Source: Fragilariopsis cylindrus CCMP1102
Lineage: Eukaryota; Bacillariophyta; Bacillariophyceae; Bacillariales; Bacillariaceae
DNA: 64,000 bases
Direction of reading: 5' to 3'
NCBI GenBank assembly: GCA_900095095.1
Contig: FMBT01000289.1
Location: 310,001 to 374,000 of the forward strand
The notes below the pieces were generated by a model. The model was given only the letters and a program-made list of their open reading frames with translations. It made no database searches and was not told the DNA's origin. How positions within the stretch are numbered: position 1 is the stretch's first letter; each line of letters starts with the position of its first letter. The position numbers and the translations under genes were made by a program. This document shows positions 48,913 to 64,000 of this stretch, in pieces.

Positions 48913-49006
48913 GTTTTCAGCCAAATAGTGAAGGACCTAGCCAATTAAGGAATAAACACTAAATCAGTGCGTTTTCAGCCAAATAGTGAAGGACCTAGCC
49001 AATTAA
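48891..49006 (+). repeat. 58-bp tandem duplication causing frameshift
   Basis: 48891-48948 is repeated exactly at 48949-49006 (both start GGAATAAACACTAAATCAG). 58 is not a multiple of three; the first copy ends the frame at 48962 and the RT frame continues in the second. Confidence 0.9.
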
Positions 49007-51089
49007 GGACTAAACTATCGCGAATTGCAGAAAAAATATTACCACATTCGATTGGAACCAAGATTAGAAGATCATTCAAAAATAACAATCATATATCTAA
49101 AAAGAACAATCTAAATGGGGTTATCTCGTCATATGACAGCGACCGGAAGTACTACATGATAGAGTATGAAGATGGTGATTCAGAGGAACTACGACACAAG
49201 ACAGTAGAAAAATATATAGTTACAGCAAATACAGAAATGGACCATATGCAACGTCTTACAAGAAAAAGCCTACAAGCTAAAGCTGCAATCCACAAGACAA
49301 AAAGAGATGCAATGAAGATGGCATTCGACGCGTTCACTGATTCAAACCTACCCCTACATCACGCAATGCCGGTATTTGATGAAGTAACAGCCAAAATGTT
49401 AGAATACAGGCATCTAATCAATCACTCTGATCCAGAAATAAGAGCACAGTGGCAACTATCAGGGGCAAATGAATTCGGAAGGACCATGCAGGGAGTAGGA
49501 AAAACAAGGAAGAAAGAAGATAGAGTAGAAGGAACTGATACAATGCACTTAATTCACAAGAAAGACATCCCCAAGAACAAGAAAATCACCTATGCAAGAT
49601 TTGTCAGTGAAATCAGGTTACAGAAAGCAGAGATCCATCGTACACGAATGACAGCAGGAGGTGATCGACTAGACTATGAAGGAAAAACAAGTACTGATAC
49701 AGCAGGAATAGAAACAATCAAGATCCACCTAAACAGCACAATCTCAAGAGCAAAACTAGGAGCAAAATACTTATGCATTGATATTGGAAATATGTACTTG
49801 AATACAAAACTCCTATCACCAGAATACATGAAAATTCACAAAGATCTAATTCCAGAAGAAATCAAACAAGAATATAACACTGAAGCCTACACCGATGAAA
49901 ATGGATATGTCTATATGGAAATAACAGGAGCAATTTACGGGCTATCCCAATCTGGGTACCTTGCGAACCAAGATCTAATCAAAAACCTAGCACCATACGG
50001 ATACCATCCAGTGAAAAGAACTCCAGGTCTGTGGGAACACGAAACAAGAAAGACTACATTCACATTAGTAGTGGATGATTTTGGTGTACAATACTTCAAC
50101 AAAGATGATGCAGACCACTTAATCAACGCAATAAAAGCCAATTATCCAGTAAAAGTGGATTGGACTGGATCAAAATATATTGGAATAGATTTGGCTTGGA
50201 ATTATGAAAAAGGAGAAGTAATATTATCAATGAAAGGTTATGTAATCAAAGCACTGAAAGAATTTCAACACAAGAAACCAACCAAACCATTTGATGCACC
50301 AGCCAAGTTTCACCAACCAGAATTTGGACAAAAAATACAGTATGAAAGACAAGATATATCAGAAAAATTATCACCAAAACAAATAAAAACAATACAAGAA
50401 GTGTGTGGAAAGTTCCTGTACACAAGCAGAGCAATTGATGGGACCATGCATCATACACTGAATGAATTATGCATTGCAGCAACAAAAGGAACACAAGAAA
50501 CACAAGATGCATTAGAATACTTCCTAAATTACTGTGCAACTCATCCTGAAGCAGAGATCATCTACAGAGCAAGTGACATGATATTAACAGTCGACAGTGA
50601 TGCAGCCTATCAAGTAGCACCAAAATCAAGAAGCAGAGCATCAGGATACCACTATCTAGGAGATATGGATGGATTACTGTTCAATGGAGCAGTTTTCATT
50701 TTAGCAAAAGTAATAAAAGCAGTCATGCAATCAGCAGCAGAGGCAGAATGTGGTGCCCTGTACATGAATGCAAAAGAAGTAATGCCAATGAGAACAACAT
50801 TAGAAGAATTAAAACATCCACAGCCACCAACACCAATGAGAACAGACAACAGCACAGCCGATGGAATAATGAACAAGACAGTTAAACAGAAAGCATCAAA
50901 GTCAATGGACATGAGATTTTACTTTGTACAAGACAGAGTAGAACAGAAACAACTCAAAGTGTTCTGGGCACCAGGAGAAATCAATCTAGCAGACTACCAA
51001 TCAAAAGTACAACCAACATCAGTACACAGAGCACTAAGACCAATATACCTATATGAAAAAGGCAAAAGCCCAGCTACACTGCAAGGGTG

Positions 51090-51299
51090 TGATGAGATCC
51101 TCAAATCACTAGCACGCGGGACTAAACCAGTTACCCCGTTACTAGCTAAAACAGCGCAGCGACAACACCTCAACCACTTAATCAAGCAGATTGCCTATCC
51201 AGTGGAATAAGAGTTGCAATAGGAATGGCTAAGATAGATAGCTCATAATAACTTTAGACATTAGTTAATAACCAAAGTATACTATATCGTAGCTCAACA
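51090..51299 (+). repeat. 3' LTR
   Basis: 210 bp, same sequence as the 5' LTR. Its first 121 bases are the C-terminal 39 codons and stop of Pol. Confidence 0.93.
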
Positions 51300-52484: not shown

Positions 52485-55400
52485 TTATCCCAAGTATTCC
52501 GCCGATAGTCGGTTTGTGACAGCTTCCGATATTCGTTTACCAATTTCAGCTTCCAGAACCTTGGCAACATCATCCCCACCAGTGGCGATCTGAACGAACA
52601 CCTTTGAAAGACTACCGATATCGGACGCTGTATGAACTTTTCCGTTCGCTGACGCCCTTGCAATCTGCTGCAGCTGGGACGTGTCAGTTCCTCCACCAAA
52701 TCCAATCACATGGAGTTCTACATTATTAAGTGCGGCAAATGTATTTGCTGCAGCAATCGAATCACCTGCACAACCATCACTCATAAAGATAATCACAGGC
52801 GTGTGCGATGATGGTGTCTTTTGGGTAAGATCGCATGCGAGTAAGGCCGCAGGTAAAAAGCAGGTACTACAGCCTCCGCTATATCCCAATTCTGCGGGTG
52901 CATTGACGATGTTCTGCAGTTGACATGTTACTCTTGCGCCACCGTCGAATTGAACAACTGAGACCAAGTCAGAATCACGTTGCCTCTGTCGACGGCTTTG
53001 CATGAACTTGTTATAGACAGAGACGACACCCGCCCACTCATATTGCATCGATCCGGATTCATCCAGTACGAAGATGTTATGTTTATTGGCATCACTAGTT
53101 ATACCATTGGCTGAACGAACTTGTGTTGCACTTTTAGGAACCAATGGGACCAATGTAACTTCCCGTTCATCAACGTTTGAGGGATGTGCATTGTAGGTTT
53201 TGCTGAGATTTTCCTCGAATTGTTCTGTAGAGATAGGATCAAAAGAACAAACAAATAAATCAATGTCTTTCTTCAGAACTTTTTCTACCACAGAATCGAC
53301 CGTCAGGCCCAACGGATGCCGAACCGCATAGCTATCAAGATTTTGTGTTAATGTACTTTTGGCTGCAAAACCATGAGCCGGTGCATCTGTGAGCAGCAAA
53401 ATAGCTTTAATCTTTCCTTCCCAGTCGCCAGTAGAATTCCATTCTACACAATGTTGAATAGCACCAAGATGATCCTCTGCCAAGTCCGCACCACCAGAAG
53501 TTGATGCTGTGAGAGTATTGACAAACTGAAGTACGTCGTGCGTGTTTTCACTAAAATGTGAATTCCCATCGAAACACTTTGAAACAAATTGCCCATCGCC
53601 ATCATCGATATCTTTAAAACCTAAAATACCAACTCGAAGCTTGAATACTGTATCTGGGAATCGTACTCCAAGCTTTGCAAGTATTGAGTTCGACCCAGTC
53701 AGTAGGGACTGTATTGTAGAAGCTATACTGGGCCCATACGCAGTCATGCTTCCGGTCACATCGATCGCAAATGCAAGATCAAGATCCATTTCTCCAACGA
53801 TCGTCTTCTTCATATTTAGGTACAATTCTTTCAGTAATTCCTTCGCATGCCGATCATTTGAATCAAGCAAAGCATCAAAATACCGATGCGTTGCTTTATC
53901 TTGTTCTTTTGCTGTCGAAAGATTCATCTCGATAGACGCATACTTATCTTCGAGGGATTTCTTTCGAGCATCGCATAGTCTTGCGTAGAATTCTTTTCTT
54001 GGCCAATTATCACTTAAACCACAATTAATTCCGAAATCATTTTCCAAATCTTTGTCCAAGAGAATGATATCATAAGATCCCTTTTTACCCTGACGCGCTG
54101 TTCGCCCTTGAATCTGAATCTCTTCACTCATGTCAGACGAGAGGAAGGTTTGGATAACATGAACCCCGCCACTTTTTTCTAAGGCCTCATCCTTGCAGAA
54201 GAAATCAGTCCCACGCCCAAAGACGGCTGTACATATAGTAACTTGGCCTGTTGTAGCAGCCTTACTGATAACGAATTCCTTTTCGTTTGCACTCTTGTCT
54301 TCAGTAAGTATTTCCTTCTTTCGTCCAAGCTTTCGATAGAAGGCACTAGAAGTATATTCTTTGAGCCTTTTCGAATCCTTGAAGAAGACGATAACAGCAC
54401 GTTTGTGCTTTGTAGAAACGTTCGAAATTTCCTCTGTGATCTTCCGAAAATAATCACTTGCTCCTTTTTCGATCGATACACCTTCCCCGGCCTTGTCAAA
54501 ACTAAAATTTGCTTTCCCGTACACAGAGGGGATGTATAGATATTGATTCACACCATATTTCTGAAGCACGTCCTTCTCATAGTCGCTCATCACTTCCAGC
54601 GTGCCACTGACTCCTAGAATTCTCGTCGGCTTGATATTAGCGTAAGAAAATTGCCCACATGAGATTGGCATCGTCAGCACTTGTGACAGCGTAGAATTTT
54701 TGTCCTTCAAATTCCCGTTGTCGGCTTCCTTCATATATGCAAAGACTGTTCTATACCCGTAGGTGACATTGTAACAAATAGTATCCTGCACTTTGTATCC
54801 AATCTGATCGGAATTGGGATCCAAGTGGTAAAATGGTTCATCGTCAACACGCCGAACTTGATCTAGCATTAGAGCAATCTCATTTTCTAACAAGAAGTCG
54901 TATCCGGAAACCTTCGCCTTAAGAGATTTGTATTCAGGCATCGCCTTGATATCACCCAAGCGTAGCCTTTTCTTGCCTAACTTGTACGATTCCCAAATTC
55001 GTTTCAATATTGATGCAATTTCTGGTTCCTTTAATTGTACAACTTGGTTGTACGTTTCTGTGAATTGATTTTGCAACCAAAAGAACAGAGAATTTTGAAG
55101 AAAGTTTTGTGAGATTTCGTGCCACGATAGAGGTTGAGCAATTACAAATTACAGACAATATGGATATACTTACGACCGTAAAATTCTGCTCCAAAAAATA
55201 CGTCGACTTCGTCAACTAGCAAAATTTCTTCCTTGGATTCTTTCTTCGATCGTTGATTTGTGGATACTGCGCCCTTTCGTTTGGGGCCCTTTCGTTTATC
55301 GGGTGACGTTCTCCTGGTCCTGGTCCTGCTACTAACAGTATCGGGTGCTTCGTACGTTGAGATGCTGGTATCCATGGGATCACCTTCCTGGCGATCACGC

Positions 55401-58400
55401 CGGTCAATTACACGACTACGGCTACGCGTAGCGTGCCTACCCGATGGCAATCTATCGTGCATGAGGGAAAGTGATAATCCTCGTATGTCACCCTTCTTAG
55501 CTGTTGTTACCTCTGAAAGAGTAGTGATCTTACTGTAATTAATTGAACCTATAAGACCAAAGCAATCAAATACATCCTCAAAGAGCTTGTAGTCGCGGCT
55601 GGAAAGATATTCACTATAACAAACGCACCGAACGTCAAAACCGAGTAGTCCTAAGATAGCAGCAGCAGCTCCTAAAATCATCGATTTCCCCTCACCTGTT
55701 CGAATCTGCAGTAATTGGCTTTTTAAGGAGCTTGTACTTGACGCCCCACAACCAAACATGCATAGTAAAGTCAATACTTGGATATTGTGGGGTTTCATCA
55801 GCAGATTTTTGGCGTCGATTCCACAATCATTCGAATCTCCTTCAAGACGGTTGTAACTCTCGCCAGATTTGAGAACAGTGAACAAGGCAAAGACTCCAGC
55901 CATGATTGTCGGTAACGCACGCTTTGTTTCATCACCAAATCCATGGTCACACGAGACTGGTTTGAGCTTTTTACATAGACTGAGTATTTTTTGGACAAGA
56001 GCATTGCGGTCTGCATCAGGGTTCAGATATTCCCCAAGGAACGACGTGTATTGCGAGTCGAATTCAAAGTACTGATCGAGCAACTTATCTGGCTTTATAT
56101 CCACGAGAGTTGCATTCGTTGTCTGACTACCCATACAGTGGCCTCGAATATCCCGAACAGTATCTTCGGGCGGTTTTTGAATTGTCTCTTCATTCCAGAC
56201 CATTGTGAGCACCTCTTTGAAGTGCCCGAACTCGGTTACTAGGTTTTGAGCGATACGAATCTCATCTTCGTCCTCTGTTTCGCCGCCTTTTTGCAGACTT
56301 AAACCTAACTCAAAAACAAAGCCGTAACCCCATTGCGAATTCAGGCATGACTCAAGAATATCTGACATCACTTTCTTGGTATAATCCTTAAACAATGGCA
56401 ATTCGACTAGTACTGCGCCCATTCTCATGAAGCATCGACGAAATTCGTCGCGACTCGTATTTGCTACTGTCTTATCCTTTAGAAACACACGGCAGTCCTT
56501 CCCGAGGTTTTCGATTTCGAATTCAACTTTCTCCACGATTCCATCGTTCCACGAAGACGGAAATACATCTGGGTACGACTTAAAGTTATCTTCCATCATC
56601 CTTAAATCCTTTATGTTATGGTTAAGTTCCTGGTACTTTCGTTGCGACCAGTTACTATCAACTTCAGTCCGGACTTTTTCTACGTGATTCTTAACAAGGG
56701 TCACAACATCATCATTTATTTTTTCTGTATCCAGCTTGGGGTTCACAAGAAACTCCATAATCTCGATACCCTGGAGTTTGAAGAGTAAGATTTTTAAAGG
56801 TTCGTAGTGCTGCTCCTTCAGCGCATCTTTCGTTACTTCTCTTAGTCTTTCTCCCAGACCACGTACTTGATCGTCAAACGGTTTTGACAAGCGATCCCTG
56901 CCTGGTATGTCCTTTTCTAATTCGTCACACGCGTTCTTGATCATCCGAAATTCGTCAGCGTATTCTTTCAGTTTTGTTTGATCTTTGCATTTGTCCGGGT
57001 GGCACTTCAAACTCTTTCTCTTAAATGCAGTCTTCATATCTTTCTTTGAAGCAGACGGAAGCACCTCTAGGATTGCATAGAATTTGATTCGCTGCAAATC
57101 CCGTCCATTCTGGAATTTGTTCCATATCAAGCTTTTGAGGTCGTCGAGCCACTTATCACTCTTTATATGGTTGCATCCCTTCAATTCCTCATGAAGTAAC
57201 GCATATCTATCCGCAATAAAGCCCCCAAAGTTTCTCACTTCTTCGATCTTCATCTTCATGGCAGAAAATTCAAAGCTATCAAGCGTCTTCTCCAGCAACG
57301 ACAATTCCTTGCACATTCGTTCATAGACTAGCTGATTAATAAGATGATAAGACTTCATCGCGTTGGAATCTTTTGTAAGGCAGGCTACGTTGAGCACAAA
57401 CCCTCGAAAATCGGCAAATAATGGTTCAAATTCTCTACAGTTTTCAGACTGTAGAGCGTCTTGAGAGTGTTTACAGATCAAAAGGAAAGAGTCTGTAGCT
57501 TGTTTCTCGAAGCCTTTGAGCTTAGAGGAAGCTGAAGGTACGTGTTTTCCGACTATCGCATCCACTCGGCTCAGAAAATCAAGACTTTCATTCACGGTTA
57601 CAAATTCACCTCTTCTCAATGCTTCGATTCCTCGACGGTTTCTCTCTACCACCTTGTCGTTCAATCGTTTCTTGAGTTTAGTGTAACTCCATGATGTTGT
57701 TTGTCCTGTAATCCATCGACTTGCAGATTGAGATGCAGCTTTCCACCAGGGAGAAGACGGATCCAAATTATCTAGTAAGCTTGCCCATTCTCGTAATTTT
57801 TCTTCTACAGAGGAACCTTCAAAGTCCATATCAGATTCTTGTTTTTGACGAGCTTCGGTCAATTCTTCCAGAACAACATTGCAATTACTATGGAATTCCT
57901 GCGGTAGATGCCTACCAAGCCCCTTGCCAAAAGATCGTATCAAATTCTGGATGATAACGATAGAATCGTCGTAGCAATGAGCTTCCGCTGCAGATTCCTT
58001 GACTTTTTGCAACACGTCATTCACTTGAACAACGAGAGCAGCCGTACTCTGAGCATAAAGTTGCGTGAGGTCATTGAAGATCGGATCATTAAAACCTGTA
58101 GTATGCTTCAATCCTGTAAGTATCTTATCAACCTCCCATGATTTAGTGAATGAGGAATCAATGAATTTCTCGATATGAGAAGGAACGGAACGCTTGAGAT
58201 CGGAGAAATCCGTCAATGCTTCTTTCATTTTTTTCTCGGAGCCTTTTGATAAGTAGTGTCCTAAATAGCTAGAATAAATAGCTGCCTGTTCATGCAACTT
58301 CGCCAATGTTACAAAGTCTGCTCGTTTGATCGCATCACTCGCATTTTTTAGTAACGAACAATACCTCGTATTTACTTTGTCTCTGCGAGTTTTTAACCGC

Positions 58401-61400
58401 GCTCCTAGGCTTGGAGTACGATTCTTTTTCGGTATGTATTCACCAGCTTCATCATTTGCTTGTTCAAGAATCTTGACGTAGGATGCAATCTTTTGCCCGT
58501 TCTCTTTGGTTATCTTCGCATTTAGAGCATGGCATAATTTTTCGTCTATCACTTTCAACGACTTTGAAATCTTCTCCATGCATTTTTTGAGCTTGAGCTT
58601 TTTGATCTGATCCTTCGACTTGGCCAAAGGTGAAAGTAACTCCCCGAGACCACTAAAATCGTTCTTCCCAATCATTTCGGTGATAAATCCATCAGCATCG
58701 ACTTCTTTTTCTATACGAAGGCGTTTTAATGGACGAAGACGACTGCTGACTTCTTGGGAGACGAATTCGTCTAACACAGCCGCTTTTTCGAAATCTTCAA
58801 GAAGATCATCGATCGAATCGAATTCAGATGTCTGTTCGACCATGTCTTCAATATTCTTGGCATCGCTCGAAATACGTTGCCGAGCAGCTTCTTTGAGGTC
58901 TTCAACTCTTGGGAGGTGTGGTGCGGTGCTGGGAAAGTCTCCTAGAGCTTGGACTCGAGCGAGTAAGATTGCGAATTCTTCATAACTCACCTTAGAATCG
59001 AGAAATACCTGTACTTGCTGGTTGAAGTTTGAAAATGCTGCCATAGTTTCATCCTTGAAAGATTTACATAGTGCCTTGATGCTCTCACCACACGGCATCT
59101 CGATAACTGCAGTCATCTCGCTAATCGCAACATCCAGAATTTTGGTTGATACTGTCAGTTTCTCCCAATCCTTGTCTTCACTCAAGACTGCTTCAACCCA
59201 CGCATTTAAAGTGTCTTGCCAATAGCTTACTCGACTGCGTATGTGCGAACGTACTTTGTCAAAGAGCTGGGCTACATGATCAGAGAATTCTCGGTCTCCA
59301 ATGGTCGAACTGAATGTTGTGCATTCCACGATCTCTAGTAGGACTTTTTTCAGTTCTTTAGTGGCCTCGATCGATTCTCCTAAGAATTCAGGATTCCCGA
59401 TATGGTTCGAAATCCAAGAAAGCTTGACCGTAACAGATTTTTCGGATGCTAAAAATATACGCCAGTAATCATTCCGGATCTTGGTCGTGCAGTTTTTTAC
59501 AAAACGTTCCACCTGCGGAAGAAAGTTGTCGAACCATTGATATGCTGCAAAGCTGCATACCGCTTTTCCATCTCGTGCACCATCACCAACACCATGGTCC
59601 AGTGCATTATTCGACATCTCATCGAGTTCCCCAGATTTTGCTTTAAGGATAGACTTGGTTCCATCGACCAGTTTTTTGTAAGAAAATTCCATCTCCTTCC
59701 ATTGTGAACCTTCAAAATCTGAAAACGTCGACATAATATCGCGAAGAATGGCTAATCGTTCTGACCACTGTGCCGCATCAAGTTCGTGATAACTTTGTTT
59801 CGATTCCAAACACGCTCCTGTGAATCTTCCAACTACTTGAGACTCGATTTTATTTTGGATAGATCCGACAAGAACAACAATATCATCTTCTACACCAGTC
59901 TCTATTATCACTCCTGACGCCATCTGAAGAGTTCGGATTTGAGTTGTGAGATATTCGACGGCCTGCTTATTCCCGAAATCAACTTCCATTACTAAAGGAG
60001 AATGATAATTTTCCCATACTTGAATATCGGTTTTCAATCTTAGCACAAAATCGTTGAATGCATTAGATGCGCCTGATACTTCTGGTATATATAGAGATAA
60101 ACCTTGTGTATTTTCGTGAACCGACTTCAATACCTTCAGATAGTAGAAGAAACTTTTCAACGCGCTCTCAGAAGAGGAGCAAATCTGACTTGTATTGAAC
60201 TTTGACAACTCATCTAAAACGTGTTTCACGGTGGTACTGGTATGAGCGATGACGGGATCGTATAACTCTTGATAATCGGGATCAAAAATACACCAAGCTT
60301 GTAACTTCTGCAAATCTTGAGAGAATCCATTGAAGCTATTATTAGCAACATCGATGAAAAGTCCCTTTTGGTACTTGGTCACCTCGTGAGTGATTCTGTT
60401 CATCTCTGTTTGCAAATTGAATGACAAATCGATGGCTTGCAGTTTCAAAATGGCATCCCTGAGGTCATCGACGTTTACCTTATTGAAGGAAGCACCACTA
60501 CCGGTAGTGGAGTTTGCTGTTCCGTTCCCCAATTCGCACTCCACAACTCCACGAAGACGCTTTACGTGATCCCCAATGATATCATTACAATCTGTTACAC
60601 TTCCTCTCATTTCTTCAAAATGAATGTATTTGTCAAAGAATTGGAACGTAGTTTGGATGTTGCGAACCTCCTCAATATTAACAGCTTCCTGTTTCAGTAA
60701 TAGTCTTAGGTCGAACAGCATTTTACGAACCGCCCCACTCAATCTCATCTTCGATGAACCTGTTAGGTCACAAGAAGTTCCATTTTTACTACCGACCTTT
60801 ACTGCTTTCAATTTTTCCTCAATAAATTTAGTCATAGATTTAAAGTCTGTTCTGAGTGGATGTAAAATATCAACAAAGGGGAATTTCTTTTTCAATGAAA
60901 TTTGAATAAAATTTAATAATTCGATAACATCAACATCCTTTTTTTCGGTACCATCAATTGTACGAAAAATTTCTTTCAGTAGACTTTGTTTTGCACCATC
61001 CAATGATTCCGGTACGTCTTTAATTTCATCGGCATGAGAAAAAAGAAACATAAAACTTTGTTTGTTCTTATCGAAATCGCTAACAAATTTCCGCATAAAT
61101 TTTAATATCGATCGTAAGGATCCACCACGATCTTCAAGTAAGGAAACATAATTGATTATAATAACGAAACGTAAAGTCTTACATTTCTTTGCAACACAAT
61201 TTAATACTGACGACGTTGCTATATCGATCTCCTCACCACTAGTATCAGCGAATCCAGGTGTATCGAGATAATATATGCGACGATTTTGATCCTTCTCCTC
61301 TTTTTTGTTTTTGCTGTTGTCGTTGTCGTTTTCGTTTTCGTTAGTATTATTATTACTACTTGTATTATCTTCGATTTTGTTTTCATTTTCACGCAAGAAA

Positions 61401-62146
61401 AATTTAATATGTTTTGTCATGGACGATTTAGCATGACCAATTTCAAATCCAGGAATAGGATTATCCGCTTCAAATACATCCTTTGCTGTTATATTTTTAT
61501 CATCACAGGAAAATGAAGATTTCTTGAAAGTTTTTCCAGCAATACCTTGAATGAATGTACTTTTGCCAGTCCCCGTCTTACCAACAACGAGTACCACATC
61601 CTTCCCCTCGATGTGTTTTAAAGTTTCTTCACTCCTTTCAATGCAATCACGTAATAGATCAACATCAAAAGACTTCCCAATCAATGACAGATCACCATTG
61701 CTACGTAAACCGTCCTTCTTATTTTCTTCATCATCATCACCATCTTCATCCATATCAAAATTAAATTCCTCATCACCATCATCACTATCGTTACTTTCCT
61801 CGTCGTCGTCCTCGTCGTCCTTAGATTCTGATTCATCGTCGCACGACATAGAAGAATCATTATCATTATTATTACTACCAATTTTGGCGACGTCGCCACC
61901 GCTACTAGCACTGTTGCCAACAACCTGCCATCCTTCCGACGAAGACGAAGACGACGAACGCGAAGTAGAAGCATTGTTGTTGCTTGCGTTGGCGTTGTTG
62001 GTTGTTGTAGACGCCATCGCCATCGTCGCGCCTTCCCCTACCTTTTCACGACCTTCGGCGACAACATCCGTACCGGCATCTTCCATGACATAATCATCAT
62101 CATCATCGTCGTCCAACTTATTATTACTGTTATTAGGGTCCTGCAT
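52485..62146 (-). CDS. Giant GTPase / J-domain / SecA-like / double-vWA protein
   Basis: Two exons, 62146-55174 and 55057-52485, with a 116-bp intron (gtaagt / ttcacag), splice in frame to 3181 residues. After an acidic disordered start, a GTPase has G1 GKTGTGKST (about 187), G3 DTPGFADT (about 295) and a G4-like FSHAD (about 365). Some 1250 helical, partly coiled-coil residues follow, then a J domain with HPD (about 1700). Next is a SecA-type DEAD motor: Walker A RTGEGKS (about 2150), Walker B LLVDEVDVFF (about 2310), the splice junction inside the next conserved FYG-QTYN, then GRGTDFF (about 2600) and QIQGRTARQGKKG (about 2640). Two vWA domains end it: DVTGSM (about 2755) with LLLTDAPAHG, and DESGSM (about 2990). 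A mechanochemical chaperone or remodeller is inferred; there is no targeting peptide, so it is not plastid SecA. Confidence 0.9.
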
Positions 62147-62948: not shown

Positions 62949-64000
62949 CTATCTGATACATTCTGCCGTAAGACGATCAACAACGGCATCAGAAATTCGT
63001 TGACTGATCGCATCTTCCAAAAGAGTACTAACTTTGTCACCATCCGCGATATCAATAAACACATTCAAAAGACTATCGATGTTCGCTGCGGAGTGTACCT
63101 TTCCTCTGTTCGATGCGCCCGCAATATCCTGTAACTGGTTTAAAGACGTATCGTCTCCAAATCCAATTACATGGAGCTCTATCTCATCCAAAGAAGAAAC
63201 CCGACTTTTCCATTCTCGATTGAGATCTGCAAAAATTCTCGCTGCATCTTGTGAATCACTAGCCGCGCCATCACTCATAAAGATAATCACAGGCACATGA
63301 GATGCCGGGGTATGGTTAACAACCTCACACGCCAATAAAGCCGCAGGTAAAAAGGAGGTAGAACCACCCTCGAAGTCCAAGTCTGTGGGCGCATCTATGA
63401 TAGATTGTAGTGTACATGTTATTCTTGCACCACAATCGAATTGAATAATCGATATCAAATCATGCTCAAACTGGTGTTGTCGACGATGCTGAATATAATC
63501 TTTGTATGCCACCACCACTCCAGGCCAACTTTCAACCATGGATCCGGATTCATCCAAAACAAATAGTATATGCTTATTATAGGATTTCTGAATCGCAGTG
63601 TCTTTTTCGTGATCATGACGAATGGGGATCAAAGGGATTGACAAAATTTCATTTTCTTCTTCATTCTTAGCATGCTCCACGTAAGCAGTAGCCAATTCAT
63701 CGCGAAGAAGATGCATATCAAAGGTATTGTCAACCGATACGATTTCTGTACGATGAATGATCTCTCTACCTCCCTCAACATCTTCTTCATCTGACCCAAA
63801 ATCATACTCTTCTTCGCTGTCTTCGAAATTGGAGACATTGGAATTATCGTCGTTAATGCTAGGATTGATTTCATCCAATCCTTCAACCTCTTTCAACTCG
63901 TCTACATCGAGATTACTTTCGACAACGCCTGTGTCTTCCTTCTTGATGTTACGAGAATCGAAGTAAGCATCGCTCTTCCTTTCTGAATCTACTACAGTAC
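62949..64000 (-). CDS. vWA-domain C-terminus of a giant-protein paralogue, 5' end beyond window
   Basis: The frame is open from the right edge to the stop at 62949 (about 349 codons seen). After an acidic stretch (FEDSEEEYDFGSDEED) comes a vWA domain with the full MIDAS motif DESGSM, then DLISIIQFDCGARITC, FLPAALLACE, PVIIFMSDGAASDS and ELHVIGFGDD. These align over their whole length with the last vWA domain of the giant protein downstream (for instance FLPAALLAC, VPVIIFMSDG, ELHVIGFG, the RISDAVV.RL tail). Similarity extends upstream of the vWA into LIPIRH / LVPLVP. It is therefore the end of a second member of the same family, in the same orientation, about 800 bp upstream. Whether it also has SecA, J or GTPase domains lies outside the window. 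Confidence 0.85.
   Translation of the reverse strand, partial: TVVDSERKSDAYFDSRNIKKEDTGVVESNLDVDELKEVEGLDEINPSINDDNSNVSNFEDSEEEYDFGSDEEDVEGGREIIHRTEIVSVDNTFDMHLLRDELATAYVEHAKNEEENEILSIPLIPIRHDHEKDTAIQKSYNKHILFVLDESGSMVESWPGVVVAYKDYIQHRRQHQFEHDLISIIQFDCGARITCTLQSIIDAPTDLDFEGGSTSFLPAALLACEVVNHTPASHVPVIIFMSDGAASDSQDAARIFADLNREWKSRVSSLDEIELHVIGFGDDTSLNQLQDIAGASNRGKVHSAANIDSLLNVFIDIADGDKVSTLLEDAISQRISDAVVDRLTAECIR

What the first reader, a model, noticed from the sequence alone, without database searches (positions are those of the whole stretch)
52485..62146. 3181-residue fusion of GTPase, J domain, SecA-like motor and two vWA domains
Seen directly: Walker A/DTPG of a GTPase, HPD of a J domain, both halves of a SecA-type motor (RTGEGKS, DEVD, GRGTD, QGRTARQG) and two MIDAS motifs in one spliced frame. 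SecA motors normally export proteins in bacteria and plastids; here there is no presequence and the SecA part is preceded by a J domain (Hsp70 recruitment) and followed by vWA adhesion domains. Inference: a cytosolic protein-remodelling or defence-type machine that couples Hsp70, GTP and ATP. I know of no described function for this architecture.
Basis: partly seen in the sequence, partly recalled or inferred. Interest (0 to 1): 0.88.

Follow-up and report, generated by a model that had tools for sequence, protein, structure and literature searches.

The report
Giant GTPase-J-SecA-vWA protein machine
A diatom gene encodes a very large protein that fuses a GTP switch, an Hsp70-recruiting domain, a motor related to the bacterial export motor SecA, and metal-binding vWA domains; it belongs to a large, barely described family of SecA-like proteins in many protists and some animals, and probably pulls on or unfolds other proteins.

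Summary
The minus-strand gene 62146-52485, with one 116-bp GTAAGT...CAG intron, encodes an uninterrupted 3181-aa protein: acidic leader, TRAFAC-type GTPase, about 1200 aa without a Pfam match, J domain (HPD), SecA-like NBD1 and NBD2, two vWA domains. Homologues that read straight across the junction support the splice. Three overlapping searches found 116, 646 and 259 relatives: diatoms, other algae, dinoflagellates, Hexamita, Reticulomyxa, Tetrahymena, Arcella, rotifers, Hydra; few bacteria. The motor is SecA-derived: profile comparison E 2e-27; the 22 best of 50 listed structural matches are SecA or SecA2. But it is not SecA: own clade (100/100), and no sequence match to the crosslinking or wing/scaffold domains. 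An ordinary, presumably plastid, SecA is a separate gene. Motor plus vWA1 at near-fixed spacing is the recurrent unit; the J domain is an addition in an algal clade. A 2013 Wolbachia paper noted a eukaryotic secA clade; the passages read gave no such architecture or function. Best mechanism (inferred, 0.42): a GTP-gated cytosolic polypeptide-pulling machine, fed by Hsp70 in the algal branch.

The parts
52485..62146 (-). whole gene, two exons, 3181-aa protein
   Evidence: joined translation; homologues
55058..55173 (-). intron, 116 bp, GTAAGT...CAG
   Evidence: homologues read across the junction
61682..62146 (-). acidic low-complexity leader, residues 1-155
   Evidence: sequence
60782..61669 (-). 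TRAFAC-type GTPase domain, residues about 160-455 (GKTGTGKS 189, DTPG 295)
   Evidence: model pLDDT 85.1, pTM 0.83; fold matches; invariant G1 and DxxG residues
57092..60739 (-). long middle region, residues about 470-1685, no Pfam match over cut-off; helical nature is an inference by eye, not folded
   Evidence: inference
56915..57082 (-). J domain, residues 1689-1744, HPD 1716
   Evidence: PF00226 E 1.2e-10; PDB J domains
55174..55807 (-). SecA-like NBD1, first part: Walker A RTGEGKS, low-complexity basic insert, DEVD
   Evidence: PF07517 E 1.3e-9; profile comparison; model of relative P0249
54603..55057 (-). helical insert in the place of the SecA preprotein-crosslinking domain, then end of NBD1 (GVSGT)
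   Evidence: model of relative P0249; PF01043 not found
54021..54458 (-). SecA-like NBD2 (FGRGTD, QGRTARQG)
   Evidence: PF21090 E 2e-7, PF00271 E 2.1e-6; PDB SecA hits
53781..54023 (-). helix pair like the SecA helical scaffold, leading into vWA1
   Evidence: model of P0249: helices 555-599 and 603-618; full-length SecA alignments mostly run to model residue about 617-623
53181..53783 (-). vWA1, DVTGSM ... GGADLAED ... LTDAPA
   Evidence: motifs; PF25106 E 7.7e-6, 26.0 bits against cut-off 27
52596..53075 (-). vWA2, DESGSM, seen mainly in the algal relatives
   Evidence: PF00092 E 8.1e-16 for the protein, best stretch here
62949..64000 (-). tandem mini-paralogue (runs to about 65219, past the window): acidic leader and a GTPase-start-like stretch joined directly to a vWA2
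   Evidence: 53% identity to vWA2; full frame

Best explanation
A cytosolic (or nuclear) protein-remodelling machine built on a SecA-derived motor. Shown: a SecA-type two-domain ATPase core with its motifs is joined through a helix pair to a MIDAS-type vWA domain at near-constant spacing; a TRAFAC GTPase sits about 1,900-2,000 residues before the Walker A motif; in the algal clade a J domain sits about 430 residues before it. Inferred: vWA1 grips a substrate or adaptor through a metal ion; ATP hydrolysis by the SecA clamp pulls or threads the polypeptide, as SecA does but without a SecYEG channel; GTP binding switches assembly or access; the J domain recruits Hsp70 to hand over unfolded clients. 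The confidence given is for this mechanism; that it is a SecA-like motor fused to GTPase, J and vWA I hold at about 0.97.
Confidence: 0.42

Rival explanations
1. Cell-autonomous immunity or parasite-host conflict machine: a dimerising GTPase like GIMAP or GBP senses or coats intruders, and the SecA motor with vWA strips their surface proteins or assembles a complex.
For: Fold matches of the GTPase include GIMAP, Toc34 and GBP1; relative P0190 has precomputed PF02263 (recalled as the GBP GTPase model). Many paralogues listed for Hexamita and bdelloid rotifers. Relatives in a Chlamydiota and a Gammaproteobacteria MAG and in P0178, a Gammaproteobacteria MAG protein with a U-box. Wolbachia wBol1 carries eukaryote-like secA genes (PMC3639933).
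Against: No defence-library match above weak P-loop and helicase hits; in this diatom genome exon 2 finds only itself and the mini-paralogue (a lower bound); the lifestyle of the Gammaproteobacteria is not known here.
Confidence: 0.25
2. RNA or DNA remodeller: a superfamily-2 helicase that only looks like SecA.
Against: Ranks 1-22 of 50 are SecA/SecA2; twenty of them align 385-492 residues, the two truncated constructs 322 and 384, the helicases 304-329. Pfam, NCBIfam and PDB sequence hits of the motor are mainly SecA. vWA and J fusions suit protein clients.
Confidence: 0.12
3. A second Sec-type translocase that pushes proteins across a membrane (plastid, ER or secondary plastid envelopes).
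For: SecA ancestry; Toc34-like GTPase fold.
Against: No membrane segment by hydropathy and no presequence by eye; present in rotifers, Hydra and Hexamita, which have no plastid; no wing/scaffold match; an ordinary SecA is a separate gene and groups with bacterial SecA.
Confidence: 0.08
4. Gene-model or assembly artefact joining unrelated genes.
For: No RNA from this species was seen; low-complexity leader.
Against: The same order recurs in other species and datasets: 35 of the 116 rows carry SecA_DEAD, DnaJ and VWA together by precomputed Pfam (hand count); transcript-named relatives span the junction.
Confidence: 0.02

Closest known systems
SecA / SecA2 preprotein translocase ATPase
   Same: NBD1-NBD2 motor, motif set, long scaffold-like helix; best structural and profile match
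   Different: Separate clade; no PF01043 or PF07516 match; DEVDVFF where SecA has DEVDSILIDEARTPL (0 of 287 relatives with DEVD carry IDEA[RK]TPL; SecA consensus); fused to GTPase, J, vWA
Eukaryotic secA-like clade noted with Wolbachia wBol1_1091/1092 (PMC3639933)
   Same: Very long secA-domain genes with eukaryotic relatives, Tetrahymena among them, apart from bacterial SecA
   Different: The passages read give no GTPase, vWA or J architecture, no algae, no mechanism; that it is the same family was not tested by sequence
Secondary SecA_DEAD proteins of Planctomycetes and others (PMC4452313)
   Same: Extra SecA-type motor without the wing/scaffold domain, or with a fragment of it
   Different: Bacterial, tied by that title to type I secretion; two Chlamydiota secondary SecA proteins fetched here fall on the SecA side and L029 keeps the crosslinking domain
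Midasin (Mdn1/Rea1) and MoxR-vWA pairs
   Same: Motor ATPase tied to a MIDAS vWA in one machine
   Different: Motor is AAA+, not SecA type
GAP1-N2 GTPase systems with Hsp70, GrpE and DnaJ (PMC7159879)
   Same: GTPase together with a J domain and Hsp70
   Different: Bacterial multi-gene systems; the word SecA does not occur in that main text

Membership tests
SecA translocase | NBD1 and NBD2 with SecA-type motifs | tested here: met
SecA translocase | preprotein-crosslinking domain PF01043 | tested here: inconclusive
   No sequence match in window, P0249, P0178, P0106 but found in controls L010 and L029; a helical insert sits at that place in the model
SecA translocase | wing and scaffold domain PF07516 (sequence model) | tested here: not met
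   no match in window, P0249, P0178, P0106; control L010 E 4.6e-68; a scaffold-like helix pair alone is present in the model
SecA translocase | groups inside SecA in a tree | tested here: not met
   27 family rows against 9 SecA rows, 100/100; the program warns that the groups meet over long branches
SecA translocase | binds SecYEG and signal peptides | not testable with these tools
   needs biochemistry
J-domain protein | J domain over Pfam cut-off with HPD | tested here: met
   41.8 bits against 27.8; HPD 1716
TRAFAC GTPase (Era/AIG1/Toc34 side) | G-domain fold with G1 and DxxG | tested here: met
TRAFAC GTPase (Era/AIG1/Toc34 side) | G4 motif for guanine specificity | not tested
   by eye LFSHADE / FTKY stand near the expected place; no test made
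AIG1/GIMAP or Dynamin_N family | Pfam model over cut-off | tested here: not met
   AIG1 18.0 of 27, Dynamin_N 19.6 of 27
vWA proteins | vWA domain with MIDAS | tested here: met
   PF00092 59.2 bits against 23.8, best stretch vWA2; vWA1 alone is weaker and has GG[x]D.AED where the usual Thr motif stands (usual motif recalled)
midasin / MoxR-vWA | AAA+ motor | tested here: not met
   motor is SecA type; AAA models only under their cut-offs, over the GTPase P-loop

The most novel reading that the evidence does not exclude
A broad eukaryotic class of cytosolic SecA-derived protein unfoldases or extractors, GTP-gated and MIDAS-coupled, in which the channel-docking parts of SecA were lost and a vWA domain took over the working end; in algae it has been wired to Hsp70 by a built-in J domain.
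Probability: 0.35. Interest if true: 0.92.

Novelty: new variant of a known kind. Interest (0 to 1): 0.72.

Why it matters
SecA is a textbook bacterial and plastid export motor. A large eukaryotic family that uses the same motor apparently away from any Sec channel, with its own GTP switch and a substrate-gripping domain, would be a separate type of protein-pulling machine beside AAA+ unfoldases, present from Hexamita to Hydra. It gives a testable object for how a translocation motor can be turned into a free unfoldase.

Tried and rejected
Phage records: no match with exon 2. IMG/VR viral contigs: 12 stretches matched a pattern, none a relative. Bacterial spread: 2 loci in the genome collection, found by two exact peptide patterns, so a lower bound; 3 of 369 genomes of the class of G002, one of them the starting genome G002 itself; 1 of 50 genomes of the phylum of G001, that one being the starting genome itself, by SecA_DEAD. 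So rare in bacteria; direction of transfer not resolved. Gene neighbours of L009 (questin-oxidase-like, Na+/H+ antiporter, methyltransferase, one without match) give no clue. Papers: ten searches, seven papers opened (passages, or outline and abstract for PMC8837202); PMC8195603 mentions SecA-like ATPase only in giant actinobacterial secreted toxins; PMC7159879 holds no SecA; PMC5037449 has one table entry for a Daphnia SecA DEAD-like transcript. Considered and rejected: that the upstream frame is a second full copy (it is a mini-paralogue). The middle region was not folded; the spliced window protein's motor was not predicted itself, the relative P0249 was used. No plastid or cyanobacterial reference SecA was in the tree, so 'plastid' for the genome's ordinary SecA is a presumption. 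In the tree input L009 and L022 were not trimmed at motif VI, because the pattern missed them.

Full report

THE SPLICE. Of the 343 fetched relatives, 253 carry the string DEVDVFF. Many read on as FYGQTYNQV, exactly what the spliced window gene reads, among them P0257 (86% identical over 55% of exon 2) and the MMETSP entries P0034, P0248 and P0249, named as transcripts. P0001, P0002, P0004, P0005 and P0007 read FYGRK and then unrelated residues at the same codon, as a translated intron would. This supports the intron by comparison; no RNA of this species was seen.

THE FAMILY. A search with exon 1 residues 1650-2324 found 116 proteins, with Hexamita P0106 residues 1370-2177 646 proteins, best 120 listed, and with exon 2 259 proteins, best 120 listed; the sets overlap, and only about 8000 candidates were scored. 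Named sources include Pseudo-nitzschia, Cylindrotheca, Seminavis, Nitzschia, Thalassiosira, Epithemia, Chrysophaeum, Cymbomonas, Durusdinium, Polarella, Alexandrium, Hexamita, Reticulomyxa, Tetrahymena, Arcella, Adineta, Rotaria, Didymodactylos and Hydra. By precomputed Pfam (hand count of the listings) 72 of the 116 rows have DnaJ, 35 of 116 have SecA_DEAD, DnaJ and VWA together, and 0 of the 120 listed rows have DnaJ. In bacteria it is rare: two loci by exact peptide patterns in the genome collection; 3 of 369 genomes in one class, the starting genome included; of 50 genomes in one phylum only the starting genome. No match in phages or viral contigs.

WHAT IS CONSTANT. From the start of GRTARQG to the end of the first MIDAS motif there are 114-142 residues, median 122, in 229 proteins. 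From HPD to the Walker A motif there are 420-465 in 71 proteins, and from the GTPase Walker A to HPD 1432-1643 in 38. HPD is present in 72 of 80 aligned J regions. So motor plus vWA1 looks like one structural unit, with J domain and GTPase at set distances. vWA1 mostly has GG[x]D.AED or similar at its second motif. In distant members the first vWA is seen by motif more than by Pfam (P0106 under cut-off, P0178 and L009 no match). The algal and dinoflagellate rows form one clade of 13 (99/99).

MECHANISM. Committed view, probability 0.42: a cytosolic, GTP-switched polypeptide-pulling machine. Intact ATPase motifs and the SecA fold are shown; threading of polypeptide, gripping by MIDAS, GTP gating and Hsp70 hand-over are inferred from SecA, from midasin (PMC8837202, abstract) and from MoxR-vWA pairs (PMC8195603, passages). 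Rivals are an immunity-type GTPase machine (0.25), a nucleic-acid remodeller (0.12), a membrane translocase (0.08) and an artefact (0.02).

LITERATURE. Ten searches found no paper on this architecture in the held library, which lacks most subscription papers. PMC3639933 (passages) reports eukaryote-like secA genes in Wolbachia wBol1 with relatives in insects, Daphnia, Tetrahymena, Polysphondylium and Salpingoeca, forming a eukaryotic clade apart from bacterial secA. PMC4256840 lists one Legionella protein as SecA DEAD-like among proteins of likely eukaryotic origin (passage). PMC4452313 describes secondary bacterial SecA_DEAD proteins without the wing/scaffold domain or with a fragment of it (passages). 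So part of such a family had probably been seen, but I found neither its fused architecture nor a function in print.

HOST. The nearest named row in the tree is Pseudo-nitzschia multistriata, 72% identical over 608 columns; the assembly is 67.9 Mb in 818 contigs. I infer a raphid pennate diatom.

Noticed in passing
window 62949-64000, continuing to about 65219 in L006: Tandem same-strand frame: acidic leader and a GTPase-start-like FDMHLLRD joined directly to a vWA2 53% identical to that of the big protein; it looks like an internally deleted copy.
   Followed up: partly
window 48967-51210 (+): Long frame that reads like a Ty1/copia-type reverse transcriptase and RNase H (recognised from memory, no search run).
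   Followed up: no
L006, about 65936-67795 in extended window coordinates (-): Two frames that read like a non-LTR-type reverse transcriptase, interrupted (recognised from memory). Observed only.
   Followed up: no
P0178 (also P0195, P0214): A Gammaproteobacteria MAG relative of 3046 aa that begins with a U-box (PF04564 E 4.8e-10), a eukaryote-type ubiquitin-ligase domain; unnamed P0195 and P0214 have the same precomputed domain.
   Followed up: partly
P0190: A relative of 2649 aa with precomputed PF02263 and PF01419 (recalled as GBP GTPase and jacalin models), so other GTPases or lectin parts may be swapped in.
   Followed up: no
L029, L030 (Chlamydiota-phylum genomes G033, G048): Secondary SecA-type proteins with TGEGKS and no wing/scaffold match in L029; they pair with each other (96/92) on the SecA side, not with this family.
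   Followed up: partly
P0003 and P0006 (Pseudo-nitzschia multistriata): A J-containing and a J-less paralogue both listed with longest contig 60350, possibly neighbours; pairs with equal contig length also in Cylindrotheca (P0036, P0081) and Epithemia (P0026, P0060).
   Followed up: no
residue 2285, window 55274-55294: Basic patch RKGPKRK in the low-complexity insert before DEVD; P0002 and P0003 have basic patches at similar places; could be a nuclear signal.
   Followed up: no
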